40,116 nt of DNA, from the IMG/VR virus record IMGVR_UViG_3300032132_000754, positions 1 through 40,116 of that record; one strand, 5' to 3'. Positions 1-30,001 of this stretch are shown here, piece after piece (within the stretch, counting starts at the first letter, position 1; each line of letters opens with the position of its first letter). The notes under the pieces are model-generated. The model did no database searches. It was not told the origin of the DNA and worked only from the letters and a program-made list of their open reading frames with translations. The position numbers and the translations under genes are program-made. Source of the stretch: a virus.

Positions 1-1518
1 TTAGAGGTTGCTGACGGTAACAACACCGTAGTAAAGACCACCGTCTTCGATGAGCTTCTTACCATAACGAGTCATGATGCCCTTGTTCGGGGTGAAGCTG
101 TTCGGATCTAGCACGGTTGGGGTGCTGAGAAGTGGAATGTACGGAGCGTAGAAGTAACCACTGTCTAGGACAGAGCTACCCTTGAAGCCCATGAGGATCT
201 TGCAGTTCGGGAACAGCGGATCCTTGTACAACTTAAGCTTGCCTTGGACTGTACCAGCGGTAGTGATACCGACGTCGATACCGTCTTGGGCTAGAGCATC
301 TGAACCACGGAAGTCGTTCAACTGCTCAAACTTGGACGCAATATCAGCACTGGTAACCATCCAGTTTGCAGGACCACGGAGGGTCAAGCGGTGGATGACG
401 TTTGCAACTTCAAGAGTCTTGTAGAGCAACGCGATGTTACGATCAGTGAAGTTAACGCTAGCACCTGCGCCAGTGGCGAAGTTGTGAGTAGCGCGAACTG
501 CGGCTGCGATGATGAGGTCGTTGATGATCTCTCGATCGATTTCCGCAACCATTTCGTCAGCCATTAGGTCGGTGAGAGTAGACTCTGCATCGATATTGTG
601 GACAGACTTAAGGTCTTGAGCAGCTTCAAGTGACCAAGAGGTCTTGAGCTTACGAGTGATAGCGGCAACAGAGTCACTATCAATGCTGAGGGTTACCTCA
701 GGCTGGAACGGGTTGTTTTCGAGGTCATACTCGTAGTCGACCCTAGCTACGGCACCAGCAGGAAGTGCGCCAGCGCTTAGAGCAACTGAAACAGTACCAG
801 AGGCGTGATCGAAACCGGTAGCAGTAGCGGTAGTCTCATTTACGACACAACCGGTGCAGTCACCGACGAGGATCAAGTCAGGATCGCCATTGCTGTCGAA
901 ACCAACCTGTAGGATTGGGGTAGGATCTTCACAACTATCAACATCTTCACGGAAGACGTTAACAACAACAGTACCAGCGAGAACTGGACGGTGTGCTAGT
1001 GTGCCACTGACTGACATGAGGTCACCGGCTACCTGGAGAGGCTCGCCCTTAACTTCTTGTGAGGTGTAGTACGGGTCTAGCGCCCAACCGTTCTGACGTG
1101 CGAACTGTTGACTGGTGTTCTGACGCATGATCTGTGTACCCGCGACAGTTTGGCCCTTAGAAAGAGCGTAACGGTATCGGATGTAGAAAATCAAGCTGGC
1201 AGGCTGACTCATTGGCTGAACACCAACAAGGTTATCAGCAATTAGCTTCGGATACGACTTACGAATAAGAGGTAGTGCGAAACGAGTGAAATCAGCGATG
1301 TCACCAGTTGTGGTTGCGTCTTCCAAAAGAAGACTACGATTTTTGGGATCCCAGCAGTTATACTGGTTCTCAAGGATGTTACTCATCAGACCATACTTGC
1401 CTGGGTGAACTTCCTTACATTTACGTAGTACGGGAGCCCATTTCTTAACAAGCATGTTTTTCTTACTCTCGCGAGCAAGCTTCTGTGATCTAAATTCTTC
1501 GGTAATTGTTTGTGTCAT
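1..1518 (-). CDS. gp23: Major capsid protein, T4 gp23-like
   Basis: 505 residues (T4 gp23 is 521); builds the hexamers of the head shell. Residues 76-115 carry the family signature after the propeptide: ADFTRFALPLIRKSYPKLIA followed by a VGVQPM segment, the counterpart of the T4 CGVQPM region. The N-terminal stretch NMLVKKWAPVLRK (21-33) resembles the T4 delta region. T4 gp23 is matured by gp21 cleavage after Glu65; here RSLLLE ends at Glu66 and is followed by DATT, so a cut after Glu66 is plausible (inference). The ATG has the ribosome site AGGAG, which overlaps the stop of the scaffold gene. It is the last gene of the portal-protease-scaffold-capsid run, in the T4 order. The stop codon TAA occupies bases 1-3, so the gene is complete. 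Confidence 0.93.
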   Translation of the reverse strand: MTQTITEEFRSQKLARESKKNMLVKKWAPVLRKCKEVHPGKYGLMSNILENQYNCWDPKNRSLLLEDATTTGDIADFTRFALPLIRKSYPKLIADNLVGVQPMSQPASLIFYIRYRYALSKGQTVAGTQIMRQNTSQQFARQNGWALDPYYTSQEVKGEPLQVAGDLMSVSGTLAHRPVLAGTVVVNVFREDVDSCEDPTPILQVGFDSNGDPDLILVGDCTGCVVNETTATATGFDHASGTVSVALSAGALPAGAVARVDYEYDLENNPFQPEVTLSIDSDSVAAITRKLKTSWSLEAAQDLKSVHNIDAESTLTDLMADEMVAEIDREIINDLIIAAAVRATHNFATGAGASVNFTDRNIALLYKTLEVANVIHRLTLRGPANWMVTSADIASKFEQLNDFRGSDALAQDGIDVGITTAGTVQGKLKLYKDPLFPNCKILMGFKGSSVLDSGYFYAPYIPLLSTPTVLDPNSFTPNKGIMTRYGKKLIEDGGLYYGVVTVSNL

Positions 1519-1529
1519 GACTTATACTC

Positions 1530-2270
1530 CTAGTCGTCCATTGACGCGGCGATGTTCGCGATTTGCGAATCACCTTTATTTGCAGATCTAACTTCAGACG
1601 ATGCTGGCGATTGCCTTGTCGTCTTGCTCTTGGCTGGTCGCTGACGGTTTTCTGCTAAACGACGCTTCTGAGGTTTACGCTCCTCATTTAATGGTTTACC
1701 CTTATTCCTCTTAGAACCTTGTGGTTTGGCTTTGCCTTTTCCTTTCCCTTCGGATAGGAGGTTTGCGGCTTTTGCCTTACCTTCAAGTAATCTGTTCTTC
1801 TGAAGAACTTTTAGGGCAACATCGTTAGCCGAATTGGCTTTGCGAACTGCCATGTCTCTCTCCTCTTGGAGAGATTTGAAAGCTTTAGTTAGTCTCCCGA
1901 TCTGCTTTTTCGCTGTCTGAAGTTCCCGACTGTTGCCACCTGCGTCCAATTGGACTCCCTCAAGTAATGCCCGTAGGCCCTTGAGTTTTGCGGTAGCTTC
2001 GGTTTCTTCTTGTAGACGCTGCTTTTCAGCTGCTCGTTCGATAACTTCCAATTTGGATTCAAGAAAAACTGAAACCTTCCGTGCTAAAACAGCTTTTTCC
2101 TTTTGGACTGCTTCTTTGCAGACTGTTTTAACCTTTGATAACTTGTTCTCAAAATCCCGCTCATATTGGGACTTAAGATCAGTGCCGAAACGGTTAAGTT
2201 CCTCACTAATCGCAGAAATGAGTTCGTCACTTCCGCCTAATTCTTTTAAGTAGTTCTTAAGTTTATCCAT
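1530..2270 (-). CDS. gp22: Prohead core scaffold protein, gp22-like
   Basis: 246 residues (T4 gp22 is 269). It is assigned mainly by position between the gp21-type protease and the capsid protein, and by composition: highly charged, with long predicted coiled-coil helices (about residues 20-165, rich in E, K, L, Q and A) and a very basic, low-complexity C-terminal tail (about 170-230) with many K, R, P and G. Scaffolds of this class form the prohead core and are destroyed by the prohead protease before packaging. The basic tail could bind the acidic protein encoded at 2998-6333 or the shell (inference). The start follows a 33-base gap holding an AAATATAG element; the ribosome site is a weak GGAG about 11 bases upstream. 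Sequence similarity to T4 gp22 is not obvious by eye. Confidence 0.7.
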   Translation of the reverse strand: MDKLKNYLKELGGSDELISAISEELNRFGTDLKSQYERDFENKLSKVKTVCKEAVQKEKAVLARKVSVFLESKLEVIERAAEKQRLQEETEATAKLKGLRALLEGVQLDAGGNSRELQTAKKQIGRLTKAFKSLQEERDMAVRKANSANDVALKVLQKNRLLEGKAKAANLLSEGKGKGKAKPQGSKRNKGKPLNEERKPQKRRLAENRQRPAKSKTTRQSPASSEVRSANKGDSQIANIAASMDD

Positions 2271-2303: not shown

Positions 2304-3005
2304 TTAAAAATTTTTCCCGGTTCGAAGTTTATCAAAAAAACCACGAATTTCATTTACAACTTGGCCTTCGTTAACAGCTTTCGCACTAATAATGCGTTTT
2401 TCCTGTAAACGATTTCGGTTTTCAACGACCGACATAAACGAACCATGTACGCTAGGCTCAGCAACCATATCAAAAGTGACAAAACCGTAACCAGGCATTA
2501 CCTGATAATATTCTTCACCTTCATAGATAGTTGTTTCCATGTCGCCAACACCACGGGAAGAAATGCCAATGTTGACACCGCTTTCGAGTAATGCATGCAA
2601 TTGTTGACCGAATTGTGTTTTTTCTAGAACTTCACATTCACCGAAGACGACATCGCCTTCCATCCACAACTTAGTAATAAGATGGGATACACGATCCAAG
2701 TGAATCTTAGCATCGGGCGGGTGATCGAATTCACCTAAAACCCGGCGTTCTTTAATGTCTTCTTGAAGATTCTCAACAGCATTGCGCAAAACATTGAGCG
2801 GATAAATCCGACCATTAGCGTTAGGACGATTAGCGCGTTGGAATTGTCCACCGATCCGAAGAACAGGAACTTTCTCACCACCAGCGCTTTCTACCATAAC
2901 ACGATCTGAACGCATGATCTTTAAAGGAAAAGTATCACACAACATAGATCGCGTACCGATATTACCGGTCATAGCAATTGAAGATCTATTAATTAGATTA
3001 CTCAT
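2304..3005 (-). CDS. gp21: Prohead maturation protease, gp21-like (peptidase family S80)
   Basis: 233 residues from the chosen start (T4 gp21 is 212). Serine protease that cleaves scaffold, core proteins and capsid N-termini inside the prohead. Visible motifs: NANGRIYP (about 62-69), GEFDHP with the likely catalytic His (about 91-96) and GISSRG with the likely catalytic Ser (about 147-152), then a GYGFVTFDMVAEPS segment typical of prohead proteases. The start at 3005 is preferred: GGAGAG lies 10 bases upstream and the ATG overlaps the end of the preceding gene by 8 bases (ATGAGTAA). An upstream in-frame ATG at 3029 would add 8 residues and lengthen the overlap to 32 bases; it cannot be excluded. 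Portal, core, protease, scaffold, capsid order matches T4. Confidence 0.9.
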   Translation of the reverse strand: MSNLINRSSIAMTGNIGTRSMLCDTFPLKIMRSDRVMVESAGGEKVPVLRIGGQFQRANRPNANGRIYPLNVLRNAVENLQEDIKERRVLGEFDHPPDAKIHLDRVSHLITKLWMEGDVVFGECEVLEKTQFGQQLHALLESGVNIGISSRGVGDMETTIYEGEEYYQVMPGYGFVTFDMVAEPSVHGSFMSVVENRNRLQEKRIISAKAVNEGQVVNEIRGFFDKLRTGKNF

Positions 3006-6000
3006 CTTCTGTTGGCTCTCCGACTTCATCAGCGCCCTCTGCTAAGCCTTCATCAGACTCTTCGTCATCTGAACTTAACGCATCATCTAACGCACCATCA
3101 AGGTCATCGTCTGATTCGTCATCAAGTCCTGGAGGAGGTGGGAGTGGACTGTCATCGGCTGGAGGGCCTGCTGGGCCTTCATCTCCTAAGCCACCATCGC
3201 CACCAAGATCACCACCTAATTCGTCGTCGCCCAGCCCAAGATCGTCGCCAAGTTCATCGTCGCCAAGACCTAAATCGTCTTGTAAGATGCGATCAACTGC
3301 GGCTGCTACACTATCGGGAGAACCGACAAATGCTGCTACTTTCTCTTCTGCTAGAGCGTCGCCTTTTTTGGTGCCTTCGGCACTCAATTGTGATTTTTCA
3401 TAGCCAGGCTTGTGGTACTTGCGACTTGGTCCCTTGTACTGAGCTTCGAATGGGTTTCCACCGTCGCCGTCGTCCTTGGGCTTATCGCCGTCGTCATCGT
3501 CCTTAGGCTTGTCATCATCGCCGTCATCGCCGTCATCGCTGTCGCCGCCATCACATTTGCCATTACAAATGAAGTTAGGTTTCTTGCAACTGCTGCAAGT
3601 TCCTTTCTTAGCTTCTTCACTTACTGGCTTGGATTTGCATTGGCATTTTTGGCTGCATTGGCAATCTGAATCTGCGCCGCATGCGCCTGCCTTAGGACAA
3701 CCACATTCGAGACCTTCCATTTCTGAAATCATCTCCGCGATACGTTGTGGGGTTAAGAAGTCGAATGATTCGGCAACTCCATCAGAGCCTTGGAGATCAC
3801 TCATATCTCCGCCCTTGGATGCAGCCTTTAGACCACCATCAGACTTTACTTTACCCTGGCCTTTAAGAGAATCAGTGCCTGTACTATCGCTCTCTACGCC
3901 TTCGCCGCCCTGGTCGTCACTCATATCGAGTCCGACTGCTGTTGGGCCGCCCTGTGCTTCGTAACTCTTAGCACCATTAGCGCCTTGGCCAGATGCCCCA
4001 TCGCCTTGAGTCAATGACTTAGGCTGAACACTGCCTTTACCTTTACCTTGATGGTCTGATCCCATGCTTAGTCCGACTGAACTGAAGCCGCCCTTTGCTA
4101 GAGCTGGATCACCACCTGAGACTGGGATTGTGCTTTCTGAAGCCTGAGCTGATTTAGAAGTTCCCTTGCGGCCATCAGTAGTACTGACGCCTTGCTTTTG
4201 GACTCCACCGCCGCCTTGTCTATCGTCCATGCGGGTCGAACCACCAGCGGAACCGCTGTTTGATCCTTCACCTGAACGTCCGTCAGAAGGTTTGGTTCCC
4301 TTCTTAACAACACCGCCGCCTCGTTGAGGTGCGTGCTGTCCGGCTGCTTCACCACCGGCACTACGTCCGTCGGATGTCTTAGCTGATTTGTCGGCAACGC
4401 CGCCCTCGCCACGTAGGTCATCCATTCGGAGACCGCTAGAATCTGACAATCCGCCAGATGCTTCCCATGGCTGTTCACCCTCAGAAACTAGACCACGATA
4501 TGTCTGGTCAATTCTGTCTTCAAGCGAAAGTTCTTTTGGTTGTTTCTTCGCGGCCAATGGCTTACCGTTAAGTGCTGCCATGACGCTTTCCAAGTATGGA
4601 TCGTTATCAGGATCAAGATCAGCTAGGACCTGGTCGCCTGTACGAACCATGCGTGAACGCATTTCTTCGAAATTTTCTCGTAGGGCGCTAGCACGTGGGC
4701 CAATTGCGATGCAACGCTTGACATAGCGTTCCATGTCGTCATAGCATTTGTTAAAGCCATCTTCTGCGAGATAGGTGTCGCCATTTACCTGCCAAGACTT
4801 AAGCTCCTCGTTAAGTTGAGTAGCATTCATCTTTTCGACTGCGGTAAGCTTGCCTTCAAATTGTGGGGGTACAGCGCCTGGAGCTTCCTCTTCTTCTGGA
4901 GGTCCAGCAGGAGGACCTTCTTCATCAGATGGAAGACCTTCTTCCTCTTCTTCACCCTCGTCGCCACCGACTTCAGGGAGGGGAACTAGGTCACCGTCGC
5001 CTTCTTCGCCATCTGGCTCTTCTTCACCTGGCATAGCATCGAATCCTTCAAGATCCTGGATACTATCGACTAATGAGTCGCTGATGCCAGCTAAGAGTTC
5101 CTCAGCTTGGAGAACTGCGTCAGTATCAACATCAACTCCGCTTAGACGCTCAACCAATTCGTTAAGCTCATCTAGGGAAGCAGAAACTTCTTCACCATCC
5201 TCATCTTCAAGATCAGGTAGGATAGAAGCGATAACTCGCAATGTAGTTCGGTATGCCTTGGCACGAGCTGTTTGGATATCCATTTCTTCGTTGAAGACTA
5301 GACCAAGGAATCGGTCATAATCTTTATTGAAGGTATCTGACTCGGCTAGGACAGTTGTATTTGTAAGAAGACCAGCGTGCTCAGCTTTTTGAGCCATCTT
5401 AGTCCACGCTTCGACGATCGAGCCGCGATTGACTTTAAGATTGGTCTTATAAAATAGAGTGGAAACATCTTTGGCCAATTCACTATTGAATTGGGCTCTG
5501 GTAGCTAGAGTGTTTTCAACTAGTTTACGTAGTTGTTTGTTTGTTAGCAGGCTAAACTCTTGTGCTTCTTTAAGGAATTTAGCTGAGATTCGGCAAGCAT
5601 CGCCAACTTTACCTTCGCAAACAAGAGCTGCGCATTCAAGGACTAGATCCTGGAAATTCTGGCTTTTATAAGCGTTTTCGGCAGCGTCACGCATTTTATG
5701 CGCAATTAAGCGACGTCGGGTGTATTCATTGATCGGGATGATGAATTTTTGCTGACTATCTGACAAAGTTCCACGAATGATACGACCTTTGTCCATTTCA
5801 ACGTTATCACGAACTGCTTCTGAAAACAACCGGATGATGTTGGCTTGGTGATCTTCTTGAACAATGCGAGATGAGACAGAAATGTGTCGTGCTTTTCCAT
5901 CGCGGAGAGTCATCCAACCATTAGTTGGGACTACTTTAGCGCGGAATCGTTGTGATTCAATCTTATTGAAGATTTTGTCTGCGGCGGTAAGCTTACTTTC

Positions 6001-6333
6001 GCATACGCTATCAACAAGATCACGAACATTTTTCTTGTATTGAGAAGCTTTATCTTCTTCAATTACGTTAACTGGACGAATGTTTTCTAATTGAACTCGT
6101 CCATGTGAAGCTTTTTTGATGTCGGCAAGATAGAAACGGTTCTTTTCGGTATCCTCGTACATCAAGGAATTAGCATCAAGAGCTGTTAGCCTTAATTGCT
6201 TGTTAGCAGTTTTCCCAAGTCTGGAAACCGCCTCCTCAAAAAACTTAATTTTAGCTGCTGCTCCGTTGTTGATATAACGAACGAATTTGCGAGCATCCAT
6301 TGAAATCGGATTTAAGTTAGAAGCATCGCTCAT
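2998..6333 (-). CDS. Giant acidic prohead-core candidate with repeats and a cysteine cluster
   Basis: 1111 residues, not recognised as a known family. It sits between portal and protease, where T4 has its small core proteins gp67 and gp68, so a core or internal head protein is the best positional guess. Layout: residues 1-370 look globular and mostly helical; 370-500 turn acidic with a Pro/Glu/Gly stretch; 505-620 are again helical; 630-860 are Gly/Ser/Asp-rich with about six degenerate copies of a GLxMxDxxGxxGV motif, some followed by (S/T)DGR; 877-927 hold 11 cysteines; 930-980 are Asp/Gly/Lys low complexity; 1018-1050 are DDELG-type tandem repeats, ending in an Asp/Glu tail. Start ATG follows GAGGG about 10 bases upstream. 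The T4 protease consensus (I/L)xE occurs several times (for example LKE-A, LAE-S, LAE-G), so processing is possible but unproven. Confidence 0.55.
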   Translation of the reverse strand: MSDASNLNPISMDARKFVRYINNGAAAKIKFFEEAVSRLGKTANKQLRLTALDANSLMYEDTEKNRFYLADIKKASHGRVQLENIRPVNVIEEDKASQYKKNVRDLVDSVCESKLTAADKIFNKIESQRFRAKVVPTNGWMTLRDGKARHISVSSRIVQEDHQANIIRLFSEAVRDNVEMDKGRIIRGTLSDSQQKFIIPINEYTRRRLIAHKMRDAAENAYKSQNFQDLVLECAALVCEGKVGDACRISAKFLKEAQEFSLLTNKQLRKLVENTLATRAQFNSELAKDVSTLFYKTNLKVNRGSIVEAWTKMAQKAEHAGLLTNTTVLAESDTFNKDYDRFLGLVFNEEMDIQTARAKAYRTTLRVIASILPDLEDEDGEEVSASLDELNELVERLSGVDVDTDAVLQAEELLAGISDSLVDSIQDLEGFDAMPGEEEPDGEEGDGDLVPLPEVGGDEGEEEEEGLPSDEEGPPAGPPEEEEAPGAVPPQFEGKLTAVEKMNATQLNEELKSWQVNGDTYLAEDGFNKCYDDMERYVKRCIAIGPRASALRENFEEMRSRMVRTGDQVLADLDPDNDPYLESVMAALNGKPLAAKKQPKELSLEDRIDQTYRGLVSEGEQPWEASGGLSDSSGLRMDDLRGEGGVADKSAKTSDGRSAGGEAAGQHAPQRGGGVVKKGTKPSDGRSGEGSNSGSAGGSTRMDDRQGGGGVQKQGVSTTDGRKGTSKSAQASESTIPVSGGDPALAKGGFSSVGLSMGSDHQGKGKGSVQPKSLTQGDGASGQGANGAKSYEAQGGPTAVGLDMSDDQGGEGVESDSTGTDSLKGQGKVKSDGGLKAASKGGDMSDLQGSDGVAESFDFLTPQRIAEMISEMEGLECGCPKAGACGADSDCQCSQKCQCKSKPVSEEAKKGTCSSCKKPNFICNGKCDGGDSDDGDDGDDDKPKDDDDGDKPKDDGDGGNPFEAQYKGPSRKYHKPGYEKSQLSAEGTKKGDALAEEKVAAFVGSPDSVAAAVDRILQDDLGLGDDELGDDLGLGDDELGGDLGGDGGLGDEGPAGPPADDSPLPPPPGLDDESDDDLDGALDDALSSDDEESDEGLAEGADEVGEPTEDE
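3178..3282. repeat. Tandem acidic codon repeats (DDLGLGDDELG type)
   Basis: Inside the giant gene, the protein reads DDLGLGDDELG twice in a row (about residues 1018-1040), then decays into GGDLGGDGGLGDEG. The DNA shows the matching imperfect tandem copies, suggesting recent expansion by slippage. It contributes an extremely acidic, flexible segment. Confidence 0.7.
3777..4440. repeat. Degenerate protein-level repeats, GLxMxDxxGxxGV ... DGR
   Basis: Within the giant gene, five copies have a Met at residues 637, 702, 757, 804 and 844; a sixth, near 672, lacks the Met but keeps GGGV and PSDGR. Examples: GLRMDDLRGEGGV, TRMDDRQGGGGV, GLDMSDDQGGEGV, GDMSDLQGSDGV. Spacing is 30-55 residues. The copies are diverged at DNA level, so the motif seems kept for function, perhaps as a linear binding motif (inference). 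Confidence 0.6.
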
Positions 6334-6419: not shown

Positions 6420-8351
6420 CTAGACCCAACCCGCAGCCATCCTCGACGGAAGATCGTCGATCGTAACTTCTTCATCTGAGTCGTTGGTGTCCATTTCCAT
6501 ATTTTCGGTAAGTAGAATCCGCGCTCTAGCTTTGGCTTGGACGCGCTCGTCCTCTTCAATGATTGATTCGACCAATACGTCTGAATCATCATCTCCGCCA
6601 GTATTGCCAAGCCCATCAAGTTCACAGTTGTTTAATAAACTATTGTACCCGCTGACATACTCATGTATATTAGAAGAATTGAAATTATCATATAGTCCAC
6701 GGCTACGATGCGGCTTCTCTTCACGTATTACTTTAGGCACCTTAGCCTCTTGCTCATATCTGGCGTATTCTAATAAGACTTGTTTTTCTAAACCAGAATT
6801 ATAATCCTCTGGCATGCCACCAGGCATCTCGCCAGGCATTCCACCCATAGGAGGACCGCCAAGATCCAACGGCACCGGCTCGCCTGGTGGAAGAGCTTCT
6901 TCCTCGCCGCCCATCGGAGGTGGCATTCCTCCGCCCATTCCGCCACCCCCCATCGGATCTTCCATACCAGGCATAGCCTGTTGAGTTTTTTCCATCTCCT
7001 CGTCCATCTCTTCAATTTCATCGTCTGTCATATCAGTAAATCGACGTAGAATCCATTTCTTAGGGAAGTATTCAGTTGCACGGAGAGATTCGATAACATT
7101 AGCGCGTGACTGCCATGTCTCAATACGATATAACTCATCAATGGCTGATGAACTAGCCATGTGAATGTCGAAATCACGCATATCAGATTCTTGGAATCCG
7201 GCTAACGCAAGGTGTACAATAGCAATTTTCTTAAGGCCAATAGCAACCTCACGTTGGATCCATTGTACTTCTTTGGCGAAAACCGGATCAATAGCAGATA
7301 ATGGGCGCTCACTTGATGTGCTACCCTCTCCAAGACCAACCCACTCAAATGGGATCTTAAGAGCGGCAATCATCTTTTTCTTAAAATATTCGATATCCTT
7401 GATATCATCTAAATTCTCAGCGCCAGGCAACGTAGTAATAGTCGGACCAGTACCGTCTTGACGTTGCGGCAACCAGAAATCATCTTCTTGAATCAACGGG
7501 TGCCAACGCTCATTAACATCGCCAGAAGAGGGATCGAAAAATTGTTTTTTCTTAAATTGACGAGCGATATTTTCGATATATGCTTCAACTTCAGTAGTTG
7601 GAATGTTGCCAACTGGGATGGTGAAAACACGCTTCTCTGGTGCACGAGTGATACGATAGATCAGTGCAGCGTCTTCCATCAATCGGAGCTGCTTAAAGTG
7701 TTTTCTCGCACCGTCTAATAGAGATCGGCCATAAGGGTGATACACATTTTCATAAGAAGTAAGACGGAGGTGCATTACTTGCCATGGATGTAAGAAAACT
7801 GGTTCAGAAGTTAGTTGGTCTTGGAAGAAGAATCCAACCAAGTCGCCATATTTTGTTTCAATCCTAGTAAAATTATAAACATTCATGTGCTTGAAGTTGA
7901 TAATTCCGTTACGATTTTTAGATGGTACGATTTCGGCTGGGAAATCACCATATTTAATGAGATATCGGATTAATGGGCGTAGACGATTGTCAATCAACAA
8001 TGTCTCGTAGAATAGACGCTCTAATTCTTCCTTAACTCTCTTGCTCTTAGCCTTAATGGTAATAGCGTGTTTTAATTCAGGATCTAATAAGCTACATTCT
8101 GAGGCGTATAGATCCAAAGCCATCTGGATTTCGCCAATTTCACCCATCTGGTCGAAGTCTTTATATCGCTCCAATCTGTTGATTTGTAGATTGGTCTGCT
8201 CAAGAAGAACATTTTGTTGAGCGAAATTTAAAAACCTACCGCCTGAAGTAATTCTATCAAGGTTCGATTGGTCAATGAATAGACTATCGTTCCTATACAG
8301 ATTACTCTGCTTAAAGAACGCCGCTAGTCTATCGAATAATTGCCAGCTCAT
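6420..8351 (-). CDS. gp20: Portal protein, T4 gp20-like
   Basis: 643 residues (T4 gp20 is 524). Forms the dodecameric vertex ring through which DNA is packaged and to which the tail attaches. Diagnostic stretches: DAALIYRITRAPEKRVFTIP (about 227-246), then EDDFWLPQRQDG, ITTLPGAENLDDI and the YFKKKMIAALKIP helix (289-334), which follow T4 gp20 closely. The extra length is at the C-terminus: about residues 455-520 are a Met/Gly/Pro/Glu-rich low-complexity segment, followed by about 120 residues without a T4 counterpart that I can see. Good ribosome site AGGGG 6 bases before the ATG. The start lies 2 bases after the terminase stop, so translation is probably coupled. Confidence 0.93.
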   Translation of the reverse strand: MSWQLFDRLAAFFKQSNLYRNDSLFIDQSNLDRITSGGRFLNFAQQNVLLEQTNLQINRLERYKDFDQMGEIGEIQMALDLYASECSLLDPELKHAITIKAKSKRVKEELERLFYETLLIDNRLRPLIRYLIKYGDFPAEIVPSKNRNGIINFKHMNVYNFTRIETKYGDLVGFFFQDQLTSEPVFLHPWQVMHLRLTSYENVYHPYGRSLLDGARKHFKQLRLMEDAALIYRITRAPEKRVFTIPVGNIPTTEVEAYIENIARQFKKKQFFDPSSGDVNERWHPLIQEDDFWLPQRQDGTGPTITTLPGAENLDDIKDIEYFKKKMIAALKIPFEWVGLGEGSTSSERPLSAIDPVFAKEVQWIQREVAIGLKKIAIVHLALAGFQESDMRDFDIHMASSSAIDELYRIETWQSRANVIESLRATEYFPKKWILRRFTDMTDDEIEEMDEEMEKTQQAMPGMEDPMGGGGMGGGMPPPMGGEEEALPPGEPVPLDLGGPPMGGMPGEMPGGMPEDYNSGLEKQVLLEYARYEQEAKVPKVIREEKPHRSRGLYDNFNSSNIHEYVSGYNSLLNNCELDGLGNTGGDDDSDVLVESIIEEDERVQAKARARILLTENMEMDTNDSDEEVTIDDLPSRMAAGWV

Positions 8352-14410: not shown

Positions 14411-16516
14411 CTAAAATTCGCAAGATCCCCCGGCGCAAGCAACAGTCTCTCTAAGAGATGTGTTATCGGTGGTTTCTTCGAATGTTGTCCAATCTATTTT
14501 TTGAAAGCTATTAACTAAATTGTTCCATTTTTTAATATCTTCGTCTGTAACAATTTGTTCGTTAGGAGCCTGTTCATAGATTTTATCGCCAGATTTTGGC
14601 AACAAAGCAATGCCAGAGAAAATATGTCTATTGTCGTAGATGTACTTTACAACATCATCCCATTCATGTTCAGCCACGGAAACAGTATTACTAACATTAT
14701 GTGTTAATCCTGGGCTAGAATTTGGATCTGCAGTACCAGGAACCACCCAGTTTTCATATGTCTTTCTAACAATTTTCAAAAGATCCAAAGCGTTAAGATC
14801 GTCTTTGATAATGGCCTGGTCAGAAACTTCAATACAGAAAGTGATGACTTCATCACCAACTCCCCACACAGATTTTTCGACCGCTTGCGGGTTATGTAAT
14901 TTGAAAAAATGCAATGGCATCTGAACAACGTTTTGTTGCATTCGTCGGAAATAACGACGAGCGTGATGCGGGTGAATGCCAGAACTAGTGCCAAAAATCA
15001 ACGATGTACTACCCGCAGGCTTAGTACAAGTGACCCTGGCTGCAGCTTCAATGCCAATTTGTTCAGCATAATGGCGATTTACTTCAACGGCGTACTCTGC
15101 CATCTCTCGTTGTGTATCTTGGTTTAATAATAGATCGGGGTTTTCCATCCACCCAGTGACAGAAACGCCTAACAACCGCTCTCTACGAATGATCCGACGC
15201 GATACGTCGGTAAGATAATGGAAATAACTGAATCCCGCTTGTAATGTTCCAATAATGGTAGCTGCTTTAACTGCATTGCGGAAGTCTTCCTTAGAAAAGA
15301 TGGCTCCGCCATTTATCTCTGTAAGATTGCAGACCTGCCAACCCGATTCATTAGTAAGAGGGTCGACAGGATTTAAACCAATTTCGACACAAGGATTATA
15401 ACCATAATTCAAATCGTCTAAAAAGACAAATCCGGGTTCGCCATATTTGCGAGAATTAGAAATTATATCTTGGAATTGTGGCAAAGAACATTGGTCGCGT
15501 AGCAGTGCAACGCTGTTATTGCTACGCGCTCTCCAAGGCATGATGTTTTTCCAATATAGGAAAACATCATCACCTTTGGTGGGTTCTTCTGTCTTGCTAC
15601 CAGTACGCTTTAGATCCCAAGCAACAACAGCTCCCTCACCATAATCAACCAGCCAAGTGTCGTCTTTACGCTTATTAGAAAGAACTTTTACGTTCTGAGC
15701 AGAGAATGTCTTGGCAGCCATCATCTCTTCGTCGTCATGCGAGAAGATTGAAATTGTAGCTGATCGACGAATGCCGCCTGATAACACTGCATCAGCAGCC
15801 ATCATAATAATGTCGTAAACTTGAATTGGACGAAGCTTGGATTGTCCAGCTTCGACAGCTTCACGCAATGCACGCTTGATTCGTTTTAGTGCTGTTCTTA
15901 GAGGAGCAGCCCCAGGGGCGCGACCTCCACTGGTTTTCAACCACGATCCCTTACGGCGGATCTTTGTAAAATCGAAGAATACTTCGCGGCCCGAATTTGG
16001 TGTGCCAACTAGATAAGTCGACATTAGAACGTCTAATGAATCAGCCCATCCTTCAATTGTGTCACCAACAGTGTAAGTGAACACTTCTTTTTCATCTGGG
16101 CTTTTGTGTTTAATAAGTTTTGGCAATTTTGCCACATGCTGCTTTTGTACGCTAAATCCGACACCTACCCCGGATAACAACATCCATAGCGCTTCGCTAA
16201 AAAATCGAGGACGATCCGCGTGAGTATACGCGCAGTTATACATGCGCGCGTCATTCTGCAGGATGGCTTCTCCGCCAAATTGCATTGACCTCATAGAAGG
16301 AAGGACTTTTTTGTCCCTTACTTGCTCGAACGCCCAACGAATGTCTTCGTCAATGCCACGAGTTCCATATCTCTGAAGATGCATGTCTCGGACGCGGTCA
16401 ATGGCCTCGTCCCAGGTCTCTCGTCTTTTCTTTTTCTGGTCATATCGTGAGTATTTGGTGATGAAAATATATTCGCTAATAGCGTCAAGTTGATTAGATG
16501 GCAATAGTTTACCCAT
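14411..16516 (-). CDS. Class II (adenosylcobalamin-dependent) ribonucleotide reductase, monomeric type
   Basis: 701 residues, close to the Lactobacillus leichmannii RTPR length of 739. Reduces ribonucleotides, probably triphosphates, to deoxyribonucleotides with a B12-derived radical, independent of oxygen. Conserved points: Cys95 in MYNCAY and Cys396 in WQVCNL (the likely disulfide pair), NPCVEIG with Asn374, thiyl Cys376 and Glu378, SGGIRRSATISIFS (246-259), TKPAGSTSLIFGTSSGIHPH, and the C-terminal shuttle pair Cys694-Cys699 in CAGGSC. All catalytic residues that I can place are intact. No small radical-generating subunit gene lies nearby, as expected for class II. GAGGAAA precedes the ATG. 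It is enclosed by virion and DNA-metabolism genes, so it is probably transcribed along with them. Confidence 0.9.
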   Translation of the reverse strand: MGKLLPSNQLDAISEYIFITKYSRYDQKKKRRETWDEAIDRVRDMHLQRYGTRGIDEDIRWAFEQVRDKKVLPSMRSMQFGGEAILQNDARMYNCAYTHADRPRFFSEALWMLLSGVGVGFSVQKQHVAKLPKLIKHKSPDEKEVFTYTVGDTIEGWADSLDVLMSTYLVGTPNSGREVFFDFTKIRRKGSWLKTSGGRAPGAAPLRTALKRIKRALREAVEAGQSKLRPIQVYDIIMMAADAVLSGGIRRSATISIFSHDDEEMMAAKTFSAQNVKVLSNKRKDDTWLVDYGEGAVVAWDLKRTGSKTEEPTKGDDVFLYWKNIMPWRARSNNSVALLRDQCSLPQFQDIISNSRKYGEPGFVFLDDLNYGYNPCVEIGLNPVDPLTNESGWQVCNLTEINGGAIFSKEDFRNAVKAATIIGTLQAGFSYFHYLTDVSRRIIRRERLLGVSVTGWMENPDLLLNQDTQREMAEYAVEVNRHYAEQIGIEAAARVTCTKPAGSTSLIFGTSSGIHPHHARRYFRRMQQNVVQMPLHFFKLHNPQAVEKSVWGVGDEVITFCIEVSDQAIIKDDLNALDLLKIVRKTYENWVVPGTADPNSSPGLTHNVSNTVSVAEHEWDDVVKYIYDNRHIFSGIALLPKSGDKIYEQAPNEQIVTDEDIKKWNNLVNSFQKIDWTTFEETTDNTSLRETVACAGGSCEF

Positions 16517-20218: not shown

Positions 20219-22837
20219 TTACGCGTTAGGGAAGAGCGGCGGTTGTGTCAATTCATCCTCACCAATTTCGAAGACTTCAATATAACCCTCAAATGGGATA
20301 TCCTGATTAAATGCCAACACTTTATCGTTCCCCGGAACGTCTTCTAGCACTACAGGATCAGGTAATGCTCTAATTCTAAGAATAAGCGAAAGATCGCCAT
20401 AACGTTGTTGCGATAACATGGCTTGATCTTTGCCACGAGCATAATCCAAGGTTTTAGAAAGATGAATCTCTTTAGCTTCCTGACCTGGAACAGTGTTAGG
20501 GGTATTCAAATGATTTACAATTGATGCAAGAGTCAACCCAGATTCACGAATCTCATCCGTAAACTTGTTAGATAGTCCATACCATAGAACTCCATCTCCG
20601 CCGACTGCTTCAGCGATCGGATCTGGCACTGGGTCCGGTGTTGGGACAGGATTTGATCCTGGCTCGGTTGGAACATTTGGTGATGTTGGTGGGAAATCTG
20701 GTGGCACGGGCGCTCCTGGGCCTGAAGTCGGCAATCCGCCGCCACCGCCGGATCCAGCTCCACCGCCACCGCCGCCGCCGGAAGGACCTCCAAAGACAGA
20801 GGGTGGCACAGGACCCTTAGCTGGTTTTTGAGGATCACAACCACGCTCTTTGTCGAAGTCTTCTGGCTTCTTACGTGCGATCATCTTCTTCTCGAATTTA
20901 CATGGGCTCGCGCTACGTGGGTCAGGAGCCGATTTGGTAGGACCTGGTGTAAAACAAATGCCATCGTGTTTGCCGGTCATATTGAGACATTGGATTTTCT
21001 TATCGGTTCCAATCCCAACTTTGTCGATTACGTGCTGCGTTCCATCAGTATTGAAGGCGACCTTCTTGGCTTTAAAGCCAATTTCGCCCTTTGGTGCCTC
21101 AAAACAGATATTACCTTCATCAGACTTGATATGGATATCTTTCTTGGAGTGGATAATGATCTTGCCTTTTTCGTTTCGTAGCATAATGGCATCGTCATTA
21201 TCATCAAAAACGATAAACAATTCTCCGGTCTTATTACGAATTAGTAACCACTGATCGACAATGGACATCCATACGGCACGATTTTCACTATCTCTAGATT
21301 CTGTCCATTGACCACATGGAGCCTTCTTACCACGAGCCTCGAATCCAGCACCATCAGGCGTCTTCAAACGCACATAATCGTTTTGTTTATCCAATTTTAG
21401 GTGGCAAGTGTTAGATTCTGGATCGTTGCTAATACCTGTTTTACTGATATGCCGAGGCCGAGTCCTTGTCTGCTCTGGGCTCATTTCCGTATGCAATTCA
21501 TCAGATTGCGAAGTACACAAAATGATGTGTTGCCAACGATCGCTAATCTCAAAACATTGTTCTTTTGGAGTAGCAAACATTATATGATCAAGTTCTGGCT
21601 TATCAACAAATTGCATTTGATAACCCTTTCTTGATCTCATCATAATCCCGTTTCCGTGAGGCGTTTTGCTTTCTCCGGACGTTGGGCTAGAACCGCGATC
21701 GTCCAAGAATAACTGATTGCCGTGACGAGTAATAAGCCGGATCATTCTGGAGTCATCTCCGATTTGATCTTCCTTATCGTGCTCTACTCCAAATTCTGAA
21801 CTGTTAAGTTTTTTATAGAAATTATCAGCGACAGGATCGAAACCCTTGTCGAAAAGTTCTAATAGGTGGCCGCCCTTAGAACGCAGTTTTACCCAACGCT
21901 CGTCTCTTCCTTTAGAATCACCAATTGTTTTTTGTCCTGCGTATTCTCCGGAACGAGATTTATCCCATCCAACATCACGCATTTCAATCATATGGCCTAG
22001 ACGAGTACGCCATTCCATACGACGTTGATCACGATCTTTTTCTTTTTGCTCGTTGAAAGCCTTTAACAGATATTTATAACGATCAACTTCGTAGCCTTGG
22101 TCTTGCTCGAAATCTCCTTCAAATTCTTCTTTCCATTTATATCCTTGGTCACCAAAAATCGACGTGTGTCCATATTTTGTACCCATGGCAATATACTTAA
22201 GATCGGGATCGTTTTCGACTGGTTTAGCAACATCAGCCTTAAATTTCCCTTTGCTAACAGCATCTGTTCCTAATGGAATTGGTTTTTCGTCGTGCGATTT
22301 AGGGAAAAAGCCATGAGCATTAAATAACAAGAAGTGTCCATAACGATCTGTAAATCCCATGCTCATAGGACGACCATCTTTAGGAAGATATTTCTTCAAG
22401 TGGTCATCGGGCGCTGAAGCTGGCTCGCCATCTTCGGTTACCGCAAGAGGACTCTTGATGTGATTAGACCACAACGGGTATGAACGACGTCTAGTTGGAT
22501 CACCAGCAGCACAATAAATCGGAACGTATGGATGATTTTTCTCATAACAAATCATCACAACGTCATCGATGGCCGCGTTGGCAAAAGACCCGGCATTAAT
22601 TCCGCCGCTCCACGGGGCAGGGATAGCCCATGGTAGTCTTTCTTTTTTAGTATCGATGTTGTGTAATTCTGGGATTCGAACCCTGCAGCGTCTAATATTT
22701 AGAGGGTCGTTTGTCTCTACAACAATGCCTCTATACCAACCGGAAAAACGATGGTGCAAGTCGGCGCTGCGACGATCGCCAAATCGTGCAAACAGGACAT
22801 CGAGGTTATCTTCATTAACGCTAGGGAAATAATCCAT
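20219..22837 (-). CDS. Baseplate central spike, gp5/VgrG-type, with C-terminal ADP-ribosyltransferase/KptA-like domain
   Basis: 872 residues. Residues about 30-120 are an OB-fold of the gp5/VgrG type (WYRGIVVETNDPLNIRRCRV, then RIPELH and LPWAIPAPWSGG), the domain that sits on the hub. Residues 130-640 are beta-rich repeats with recurring gly-his and lys-gly turns (RLGHMIEMRD, KGGHLLELFD, RHGNQLFLDD, RKGYQMQFVD), consistent with the needle. No lysozyme domain as in T4 gp5 is seen. A Gly/Pro-rich linker spans about 665-745. The last 123 residues (750-872) read LWYGLS...IRESGL...IHLSKTLDYA...LILRIRAL...DIPFEGYIEVFEI, the layout of ADP-ribosyltransferase or RNA 2'-phosphotransferase (KptA/Tpt1) folds. 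The domain call is inferred by pattern. Confidence 0.75.
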   Translation of the reverse strand: MDYFPSVNEDNLDVLFARFGDRRSADLHHRFSGWYRGIVVETNDPLNIRRCRVRIPELHNIDTKKERLPWAIPAPWSGGINAGSFANAAIDDVVMICYEKNHPYVPIYCAAGDPTRRRSYPLWSNHIKSPLAVTEDGEPASAPDDHLKKYLPKDGRPMSMGFTDRYGHFLLFNAHGFFPKSHDEKPIPLGTDAVSKGKFKADVAKPVENDPDLKYIAMGTKYGHTSIFGDQGYKWKEEFEGDFEQDQGYEVDRYKYLLKAFNEQKEKDRDQRRMEWRTRLGHMIEMRDVGWDKSRSGEYAGQKTIGDSKGRDERWVKLRSKGGHLLELFDKGFDPVADNFYKKLNSSEFGVEHDKEDQIGDDSRMIRLITRHGNQLFLDDRGSSPTSGESKTPHGNGIMMRSRKGYQMQFVDKPELDHIMFATPKEQCFEISDRWQHIILCTSQSDELHTEMSPEQTRTRPRHISKTGISNDPESNTCHLKLDKQNDYVRLKTPDGAGFEARGKKAPCGQWTESRDSENRAVWMSIVDQWLLIRNKTGELFIVFDDNDDAIMLRNEKGKIIIHSKKDIHIKSDEGNICFEAPKGEIGFKAKKVAFNTDGTQHVIDKVGIGTDKKIQCLNMTGKHDGICFTPGPTKSAPDPRSASPCKFEKKMIARKKPEDFDKERGCDPQKPAKGPVPPSVFGGPSGGGGGGGAGSGGGGGLPTSGPGAPVPPDFPPTSPNVPTEPGSNPVPTPDPVPDPIAEAVGGDGVLWYGLSNKFTDEIRESGLTLASIVNHLNTPNTVPGQEAKEIHLSKTLDYARGKDQAMLSQQRYGDLSLILRIRALPDPVVLEDVPGNDKVLAFNQDIPFEGYIEVFEIGEDELTQPPLFPNA

Positions 22838-28957: not shown

Positions 28958-30001
28958 ATGGCTCTAGTCCAACTTACACAAGAACAAATTGAGAGCTGGG
29001 TAGCCAGGCATTTCGATTATAAAGCTAGGCGAAACGGTGATGAGTTATTAATTTGTAATCCATTCCTACCAGGGGATGATACATACAAATTCAATATTTC
29101 AACTGTCTTGAAAGCATCAAAAAAAGGAAAATATTCCAATTATTGGGTTCATGACTGGCGTCCGCACGCGCAACAGTACAACGGGTCTTTCCTTAAATTT
29201 GTGCAACGCTACAAAGGATGCACATGGAAGGAAGCCGTCAAAGACGTCTGCGGAGATGGAATTAACCTAAAAGCAATTCTTGCTCAACATAGAGGACGCC
29301 CCAGAGAAGTTAAGGAAGTTCGAGAAGACACAAAATATGTAGTTCTTCCAGATAACGCTGTTCCTATTACAGACGAAAAATATGCCATGGCTAGAAAGTT
29401 TACTATAAATTATCTAGCTTCTAGAGGCATTAATTACGCAGATGCAGTTTCATTCAGAGTCCATTATACTCCCACAATGGTAGTATTCCCATACTTAGAA
29501 TATGATGAAACTGTTTATTGGCAAGGAAGAGCGTTAATTTCTAAAGATTTCTTGTTCCCAGATGATACACAAAGTTCCCGTGGAAAATCCCATTTCTTGT
29601 TCGGATTCGACAATGCGGAAGTAAGACAGCCTCTAATCATAACCGAAGCGATCTTCGACGCACTAACGATTGGGCCAGGTGGTGCAGCTTCGGGCGGTGC
29701 CGATTTAGTGCACGACCAACTTAGGAAAATTAGGATGATAAATCCATCCTATATTGTGTTAGCTCCGGATAATGACGAAGCCGGTTTAGCATCGCTTTAT
29801 AATAATTGGAAACTATTAAGCCCGTATTATAAGGTCTATTTTGTCTTACCCCCAGCGCCATATAAAGACTGGAACGACCATGTCCGCAATGCAGATAATA
29901 AAAAGAAGAAACTGAAAGAAATTCGAAAATTTATTTCGAATAACAAAAAGCTATTGACTATGGCGGATGCTGTTAGGCTAAGATTAAAACGCTCTATCTA
30001 A
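28958..30001 (+). CDS. DnaG-type DNA primase with TOPRIM domain, zinc ligands not conserved
   Basis: 347 residues (T4 gp61 is 342). Makes RNA primers at the replication fork together with the replicative helicase, which is not encoded here. TOPRIM motifs: Glu230 in LIITEAIFDAL, DxD at 271-273 in APDNDEAG, and KDWNDHV (303-309), all typical. The N-terminal segment 30-100 aligns with the CHC2 zinc domain in layout (ICNPFLPGDDTYKFNIST, then YWVHDW and GSFLKFVQRY), but only the first Cys is kept; the His and the later CxxC are replaced. It stands alone on the plus strand among late genes and overlaps the 3' end of the 71-residue gene by 18 bases. No ribosome site is visible. Confidence 0.85.
   Translation: MALVQLTQEQIESWVARHFDYKARRNGDELLICNPFLPGDDTYKFNISTVLKASKKGKYSNYWVHDWRPHAQQYNGSFLKFVQRYKGCTWKEAVKDVCGDGINLKAILAQHRGRPREVKEVREDTKYVVLPDNAVPITDEKYAMARKFTINYLASRGINYADAVSFRVHYTPTMVVFPYLEYDETVYWQGRALISKDFLFPDDTQSSRGKSHFLFGFDNAEVRQPLIITEAIFDALTIGPGGAASGGADLVHDQLRKIRMINPSYIVLAPDNDEAGLASLYNNWKLLSPYYKVYFVLPPAPYKDWNDHVRNADNKKKKLKEIRKFISNNKKLLTMADAVRLRLKRSI

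What the first reader, a model, noticed from the sequence alone, without database searches (positions are those of the whole stretch)
2998..6333. An 1111-residue acidic protein occupies the gp67/gp68 core locus
In T4 two small core proteins lie between portal and protease. Here a single protein ten times larger holds this spot, mixing globular helical, disordered, repeat, cysteine-rich and acidic parts. It could be a giant internal scaffold, a DNA-condensing counterpart or a packaged head protein injected with the genome.
Basis: partly seen in the sequence, partly recalled or inferred. Interest (0 to 1): 0.72.

Follow-up and report, generated by a model that had tools for sequence, protein, structure and literature searches.

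The report
Giant acidic prohead-core protein
A group of uncultured giant T4-like phages carries, in the gene slot where T4 has two tiny scaffold-core proteins, one conserved protein of about 1,000-1,300 residues that looks built to help form the virus head and then be cut to pieces by the head protease.

Summary
An 1111-aa ORF (minus strand, 6333-2998) lies between a T4-type portal and prohead protease, followed by a scaffold and major capsid protein. It is not an isolated oddity: a homologue fills this slot in all 98 portal-to-protease loci of the clade that I could assemble (60 non-redundant proteins, mostly 980-1290 aa; contigs up to 408 kb). No homologue was found in 50,697 named phage records. 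Residues 1-435 form the conserved folded part. The rest is acidic linkers, Gly-rich repeats and Cys clusters that vary between members. New evidence for a core role: (i) residues 102-133 match the helical hairpin of T4 gp67 (profile-profile E 5e-4, 0 of 150 shuffled controls as good), but not gp68; (ii) the gp21-type cleavage motif is enriched 3.4-fold in residues 1-430, as in the scaffold (3.2-fold) and the capsid propeptide (6.6-fold), and not in mature capsid protein, portal body or terminase (0.9-1.0-fold); (iii) it is strongly acidic (median -95) while this clade's scaffold is basic. Best reading: a giant gp67-like core protein shredded during head maturation. Whether some pieces stay in the head or are ejected is open. 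No proteomic evidence exists. Verdict: a real new variant of a known kind.

The parts
2998..6333 (-). X: 1111-aa acidic putative prohead-core protein
   Evidence: ORF; homologue between portal and protease in 98/98 clade loci; single copy in its record
6049..6306 (-). X residues 10-95: alpha/beta domain (helices 14-23 and 30-42, strands 47-91)
   Evidence: AF2 models of 1-447 and 1-200, block pLDDT mostly 80-92 with dips to about 64-68 at residues 21-30 and 91-95; also matched by the 595-kb phage protein
5935..6045 (-). X residues 97-133: helical hairpin like the N-terminus of T4 gp67
   Evidence: hhalign E 5e-4 to the gp67 family at X 102-133, 0/150 shuffled controls as good; helices 97-111 and 115-127 are among the best-modelled parts
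5038..5733 (-). X residues 201-432: conserved all-helical domain
   Evidence: block pLDDT 86-97 for residues 201-350, lower after; A2 mean column identity 48% against 24% for the full length
4864..5037 (-). X residues 433-490: acidic linker (23 D/E, no K/R)
4534..4863 (-). X residues 491-600: second, less conserved segment with the DGF and DPY motifs
   Evidence: alignment, (Y580 invariant)
3763..4428 (-). X residues 636-857: Gly-rich degenerate repeats of the type MDDxQGxGGV...DGRxG
   Evidence: 53 Gly in residues 641-855; similar repeats in L012 and L022
3550..3708 (-). X residues 876-928: Cys-rich module (11 Cys; CxxC pairs)
   Evidence: Cys-rich C-terminal parts in 24 of 60 non-redundant homologues, one with a weak zinc-ribbon match
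3001..3273 (-). X residues 1021-1111: acidic tail (36 D/E, no K/R)
3037..6000 (-). candidate protease sites in X, including E112^S, E160^D, E172^A, E240^G, E273^N, E331^S, E524^D, E618^G, E855^S and E1099^G (motif [LIVMF]xE^[SADNG])
   Evidence: predicted, not observed
6420..8351 (-). portal (gp20-like)
   Evidence: PF07230 1.2e-75
2304..3029 (-). prohead protease (gp21-like)
   Evidence: PF03420 2.8e-23
1530..2270 (-). scaffold-like protein in the gp22 position, basic (net +20)
   Evidence: position, homologues at the same place, charge; no family match
1..1518 (-). major capsid protein (gp23-like) with a motif site LLLE66^D67 that matches T4 FLTE65^A66 by position
   Evidence: PF07068 2.3e-78; motif; the T4 site is from own knowledge, consistent with the 65-residue propeptide in PMC9958956

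Best explanation
X is the main acidic constituent of the prohead core of a clade of giant T4-like phages, working as an enlarged gp67-type core protein. Inferred mechanism: residues 1-435, with the gp67-like hairpin, help build the inner core on the portal together with the basic gp22-position scaffold; the long acidic and Gly-rich segments fill the core volume. When the shell closes, the gp21-like protease cuts X at many [LIVMF]xE sites, so that most of it leaves as small peptides and makes room for the genome. Shown here: locus conservation, domain layout, charge, hairpin similarity and motif enrichment. Inferred: expression, presence in the core, actual cleavage, and any role in head size.
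For: A homologue lies between portal and protease in 98/98 clade loci; it is single-copy in the 16 X-carrying records checked, and nine such records (several incomplete) show no separate gp67 or gp68 by HMM. The gp67 profile matches X 102-133 (E 5e-4; score 30.2 against a maximum of 22.7 in 150 block-shuffled controls and 12.6 for the reversed profile), and X ranks first of 13 local families. Cleavage motif against local shuffles: MCP 1-100 6.6x, scaffold 3.2x, protease 2.4x, X 1-430 3.4x, X 431+ 1.6x; portal 1-450 1.0x, MCP 101+ 0.9x, terL 0.9x; forward exceeds reversed motif in residues 1-430 of 60/60 homologues. T4 gp22, a known substrate, gives 11 forward against 2 reversed. Median net charge of X is -95 against +10 for the scaffold. 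Published: gp21 cuts after L/I-X-E and degrades gp22, gp67 and gp68 (PMC9026906, PMC9958956).
Against: No expression or proteomic data. The gp67 match is 32 columns and only pairwise-significant; HMMER with Pfam GP67 finds nothing, and the bridging 595-kb phage family does not match gp67. Many motif sites sit in a predicted folded domain and may be inaccessible; counts over related sequences are not independent. In the window protein itself, motifs in residues 431-1111 are no more frequent than in shuffles (5 against 4.5-5.2).
Confidence: 0.68

Rival explanations
1. X is a packaged internal protein, like T4 Alt or IPs or the ejection proteins of SPN3US: trimmed by the protease, kept in the head and sent into the host with the DNA.
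For: C-terminal parts vary strongly and carry Cys-rich modules in 24/60 homologues; giant phages such as SPN3US carry many ejection proteins, several of them cut by the prohead protease (PMC5694885). The positional counterpart in PA5oct is annotated as a structural protein seen by ESI-MS/MS.
Against: T4-type internal proteins lose short terminal propeptides, whereas X has 8-18 motif sites within its first 430 residues in every homologue. No enzymatic family was found.
Confidence: 0.15
2. Hybrid: the N-terminal part is a degradable core protein, while C-terminal pieces (Gly repeats, Cys-rich module) are released by the same protease and stay in the head.
For: Sites such as GVAE^S, SVSE^S and GLAE^G lie at the edges of repeat and Cys-rich modules in several homologues; motif excess 1.6x beyond residue 430 across the family.
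Against: No excess in the window protein's own C-terminal part; module retention is speculation.
Confidence: 0.12
3. X is a stable structural protein of the portal vertex or inner capsid wall, not a core protein.
For: Neighbour of the portal gene; well-folded N-terminal model.
Against: The motif density is that of propeptide and scaffold, not of the portal body or the mature capsid protein.
Confidence: 0.05

Closest known systems
T4 gp67 (prohead core protein, PF17634, phrog_1064)
   Same: Same slot directly after the portal gene; a helical hairpin of the pattern LIxAIxxnDxxxAxxxF (profile match to X 102-133); strongly acidic stretches; gp21-type motif sites.
   Different: 80 aa against 1111 aa; the X hairpin is internal, preceded by an alpha/beta domain and followed by a 230-aa helical domain, Gly repeats and a Cys-rich module; no HMMER match to the gp67 families.
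T4 gp68 (prohead core protein, phrog_1049)
   Same: Same locus, between portal and protease; predicted protease substrate.
   Different: No profile similarity (E 0.31); gp68 is basic (+9 to +15) and X is acidic.
616-aa protein between portal and protease in uncultured phage LR756511 (595 kb; L171:14076-15926)
   Same: Same locus; matches X residues 37-138 (strands plus hairpin), E 5e-4 with one sequence and 9e-4 with the family profile.
   Different: Shorter; the rest is not alignable; not matched by the gp67 profile itself.
PA5oct EST35_0151 (270 aa, between portal and prohead assembly protein)
   Same: Same slot; short N-terminal hairpin, acidic region, then Gly/Lys repeats; annotated as detected by ESI-MS/MS.
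   Different: No significant sequence similarity to X.

Membership tests
T4 gp67 / PF17634 | Gene lies immediately after the portal gene, before the protease | tested here: met
T4 gp67 / PF17634 | Match to the family profile HMM | tested here: not met
   No PF17634 match at E<=1 in nine X-carrying records and no phrog_1064 match among the A1 members
T4 gp67 / PF17634 | N-terminal helical hairpin with the LIxAIxxnDxxxAxxxF pattern | tested here: inconclusive
   Profile-profile E 5e-4 over 32 columns, 0/150 shuffles as good; internal rather than N-terminal in X; independent support still short
T4 gp67 / PF17634 | Small protein (51-81 aa in the ten compared) with an acidic tail in most | tested here: not met
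   1111 aa; acidic tail present but in a giant protein
T4 gp67 / PF17634 | Present in the prohead core and cut by gp21 | not testable with these tools
   Only motif statistics are available
T4 gp68 / phrog_1049 | Sequence similarity to the gp68 family | tested here: not met
   hhalign E 0.31; no phrog_1049 match in nine X-carrying records
T4 gp68 / phrog_1049 | Net basic protein | tested here: not met
   X median -95.5, gp68 +9 to +15
prohead-core protein degraded by a gp21-type protease (functional class) | Density of [LIVMF]xE sites above chance, like known substrates | tested here: met
   X 1-430 3.4x, scaffold 3.2x, MCP propeptide 6.6x; controls 0.9-1.0x
prohead-core protein degraded by a gp21-type protease (functional class) | Found in proheads, lost from virions | not testable with these tools
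   needs proteomics
packaged ejection protein (Alt, IPs, SPN3US E proteins) | Short terminal propeptide and an otherwise uncut mature protein | tested here: inconclusive
   Motif sites spread through residues 1-430 rather than at one end; cleavage not observed

The most novel reading that the evidence does not exclude
X is a core polyprotein: one giant precursor whose folded N-terminal part works as a degradable head core, while the same protease frees C-terminal modules (Gly-rich repeats, Cys-rich modules that differ between phages) that stay with the DNA and may enter the host. Scaffold and ejected cargo would then be one gene product.
Probability: 0.15. Interest if true: 0.75.

Novelty: new variant of a known kind. 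Interest (0 to 1): 0.5.

Why it matters
T4's head core is a classic unsolved assembly: PMC9958956 says its structure remains unresolved and that how proteins are localised in it is mysterious. A whole clade of giant phages that puts one 1,000-1,300-aa acidic protein in the gp67/gp68 slot, opposite a basic scaffold, gives a natural variant of the core with a different division of labour. It also yields precise predictions (named cleavage sites) that one proteomics run could check, and it describes a conserved protein family that matched nothing in Pfam, PHROGs or the named phage records searched.

Tried and rejected
Direct searches with X found nothing: Pfam and PHROGs, tblastn against 50,697 phage records, peptide patterns in viral contigs. 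The family was reached through its capsid-protein and portal neighbours. Family-level scans of 33 members gave only weak scattered hits that I do not rely on. The PDB profile search matched only the acidic C-terminal part. Foldseek against PDB and BFVD: nothing at E<=0.001 for residues 1-447 or, in PDB, 1-200. VIA-align best Z 5.3-5.4 (MakE, helical; Sec3) lies in the range of common arrangements and is not used. I suspected by eye that X 139-215 matched gp68; the profile test did not support it (E 0.31) and I dropped it. Proteins in the same slot of immuto, Mel-JY01, RM378 and L002-L006 are not detectably related. X homologues in sequenced bacterial and archaeal genomes: none by the single peptide pattern scanned. 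No host was identified.

Full report
What is there. The window is part of a 185,177-base virus record. On the minus strand, in order of transcription, lie a terminase large subunit (10315-8354), a T4-type portal (8351-6420), the 1111-aa ORF called X here (6333-2998), a prohead protease (3029-2304), a scaffold-like ORF (2270-1530) and a Gp23-type major capsid protein (1518-1). X has a Shine-Dalgarno-like GAGG before its ATG, and its stop overlaps the likely protease start (ATG at 3005) by 8 nt.

Relatives. X itself found nothing in Pfam, PHROGs, named phages or viral contigs. The capsid protein found 80 viral loci, and a profile of X residues 1-447 found more. In 98 of the loci that hold both portal and protease, an X homologue lies between them; nine others, all more distant in portal or capsid sequence, lack it and those read have smaller, different genes there. 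There are 60 non-redundant homologues, mostly 980-1290 aa with a median of 1035; L103-L105 have an 802-aa form followed by another ORF. The record lengths include 320, 371, 395 and 408 kb. Nine X-carrying records, several of them incomplete, show no separate gp67 or gp68 by HMM search. No named phage record has X by tblastn with three different members.

Anatomy. Residues 1-435 are the conserved part (mean column identity 48%, against 24% over the full length). AlphaFold2 with 33 sequences gives mean pLDDT 82 for 1-447: an alpha/beta domain to residue 95, a helical hairpin 96-127, mixed strands to about 190, and helices 203-432. A second model of 1-200 agrees. After residue 433 come an acidic linker, a weakly conserved segment, Gly-rich repeats (636-857), a Cys-rich module (876-928) and an acidic tail; net charge is -89 for the window protein and -95.5 at the median, against +20 and +10 for the scaffold. 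24 of 60 homologues carry six or more Cys beyond residue 430.

Link to gp67. Single-sequence comparison of the X profile with about 30 proteins, most of them from the same slots of other phages, ranked the LR756511 protein and T4 gp67 first, and Xac_300, Xac_298 and L007_292 aligned weakly to the same columns. With ten gp67 homologues as a profile the match to X 102-133 has E 5e-4; block-shuffled X profiles reach at most 22.7 against 30.2 (150 trials), the reversed profile 12.6. Among 13 protein families of these loci X ranks first for gp67. gp68 gives E 0.31. The LR756511 protein matches X 37-138 but not gp67. I take the gp67 link as likely but not proven: it is short.

Cleavage motif. Published work says gp21 cuts after L/I-X-E and degrades gp22, gp67 and gp68 (PMC9026906, PMC9958956). 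I counted [LIVMF]xE[SADNG] against shuffles within 10- or 20-residue blocks. Parts expected to be cut show enrichment: capsid residues 1-100, 6.6x; scaffold, 3.2x; protease, 2.4x. Parts expected to stay intact do not: capsid 101+, 0.9x; portal 1-450, 1.0x; terminase, 0.9x. The other window proteins tested, outside the five head genes, give 62 forward and 66 reversed motifs. X residues 1-430 give 3.4x (z 45) and the rest 1.6x (z 12.6). In residues 1-430 the forward motif exceeds the reversed one in 60 of 60 homologues, and in the whole X alignment 16 columns carry it in at least half of the sequences, against 1 for the reversed motif. The motif residues were chosen by me after seeing examples in these sequences, which inflates the figures somewhat; the contrast between proteins counted with the same motif is less affected. 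Sequences are related, so z values are not probabilities. In the window protein alone the excess is in residues 1-430 (11 against 4.1-4.5) and absent beyond (5 against 4.5-5.2).

Interpretation. Position, charge, hairpin and motif density together point to a prohead-core protein that works like gp67 and is degraded on maturation. It should not be filed as a gp67 family member: the family HMM and the size fail. Whether C-terminal pieces are retained or ejected is open. Nothing here shows that the protein is made or cut.

Noticed in passing
L171:8978-11551 and L015:560-3793: Portal genes carrying an in-frame intein-like insert (Intein_splicing, 3.7e-8 and 5.5e-6, both under the Pfam cut-off) within or before the Portal_T4 match.
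   Followed up: partly
L001:4301-7993: The terminase ORF of a relative is 1230 aa, about twice the usual length, possibly also an intein or a fusion.
   Followed up: no
window 28958-30001 (+): A plus-strand Toprim-domain gene (PF13155, 6.9e-6) sits among minus-strand genes.
   Followed up: no
window 14411-16516 (-): A gene with B12-dependent ribonucleotide reductase domains (PF21995 3.6e-9, PF02867 5.5e-8) lies between head and tail genes.
   Followed up: no
window 20219-22837 (-): Baseplate injector OB-domain protein (PF04717) with a Gly-rich linker and a C-terminal stretch (YGLSNKFTDEIRESGL...) that by eye resembles an ADP-ribosyltransferase-like domain; no Pfam match there.
   Followed up: no
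L102 and L111 (X homologues): The element EDKDITDPxKKxY...MPHSNxGEG is repeated several times, alternating with CxxC pairs.
   Followed up: no
L002-L006: In distant relatives the ORF in the scaffold position is instead about 490-590 aa and very acidic, in most with GxGxxKF repeats: the acidic mass sits in that gene, not in the portal-protease slot.
   Followed up: partly
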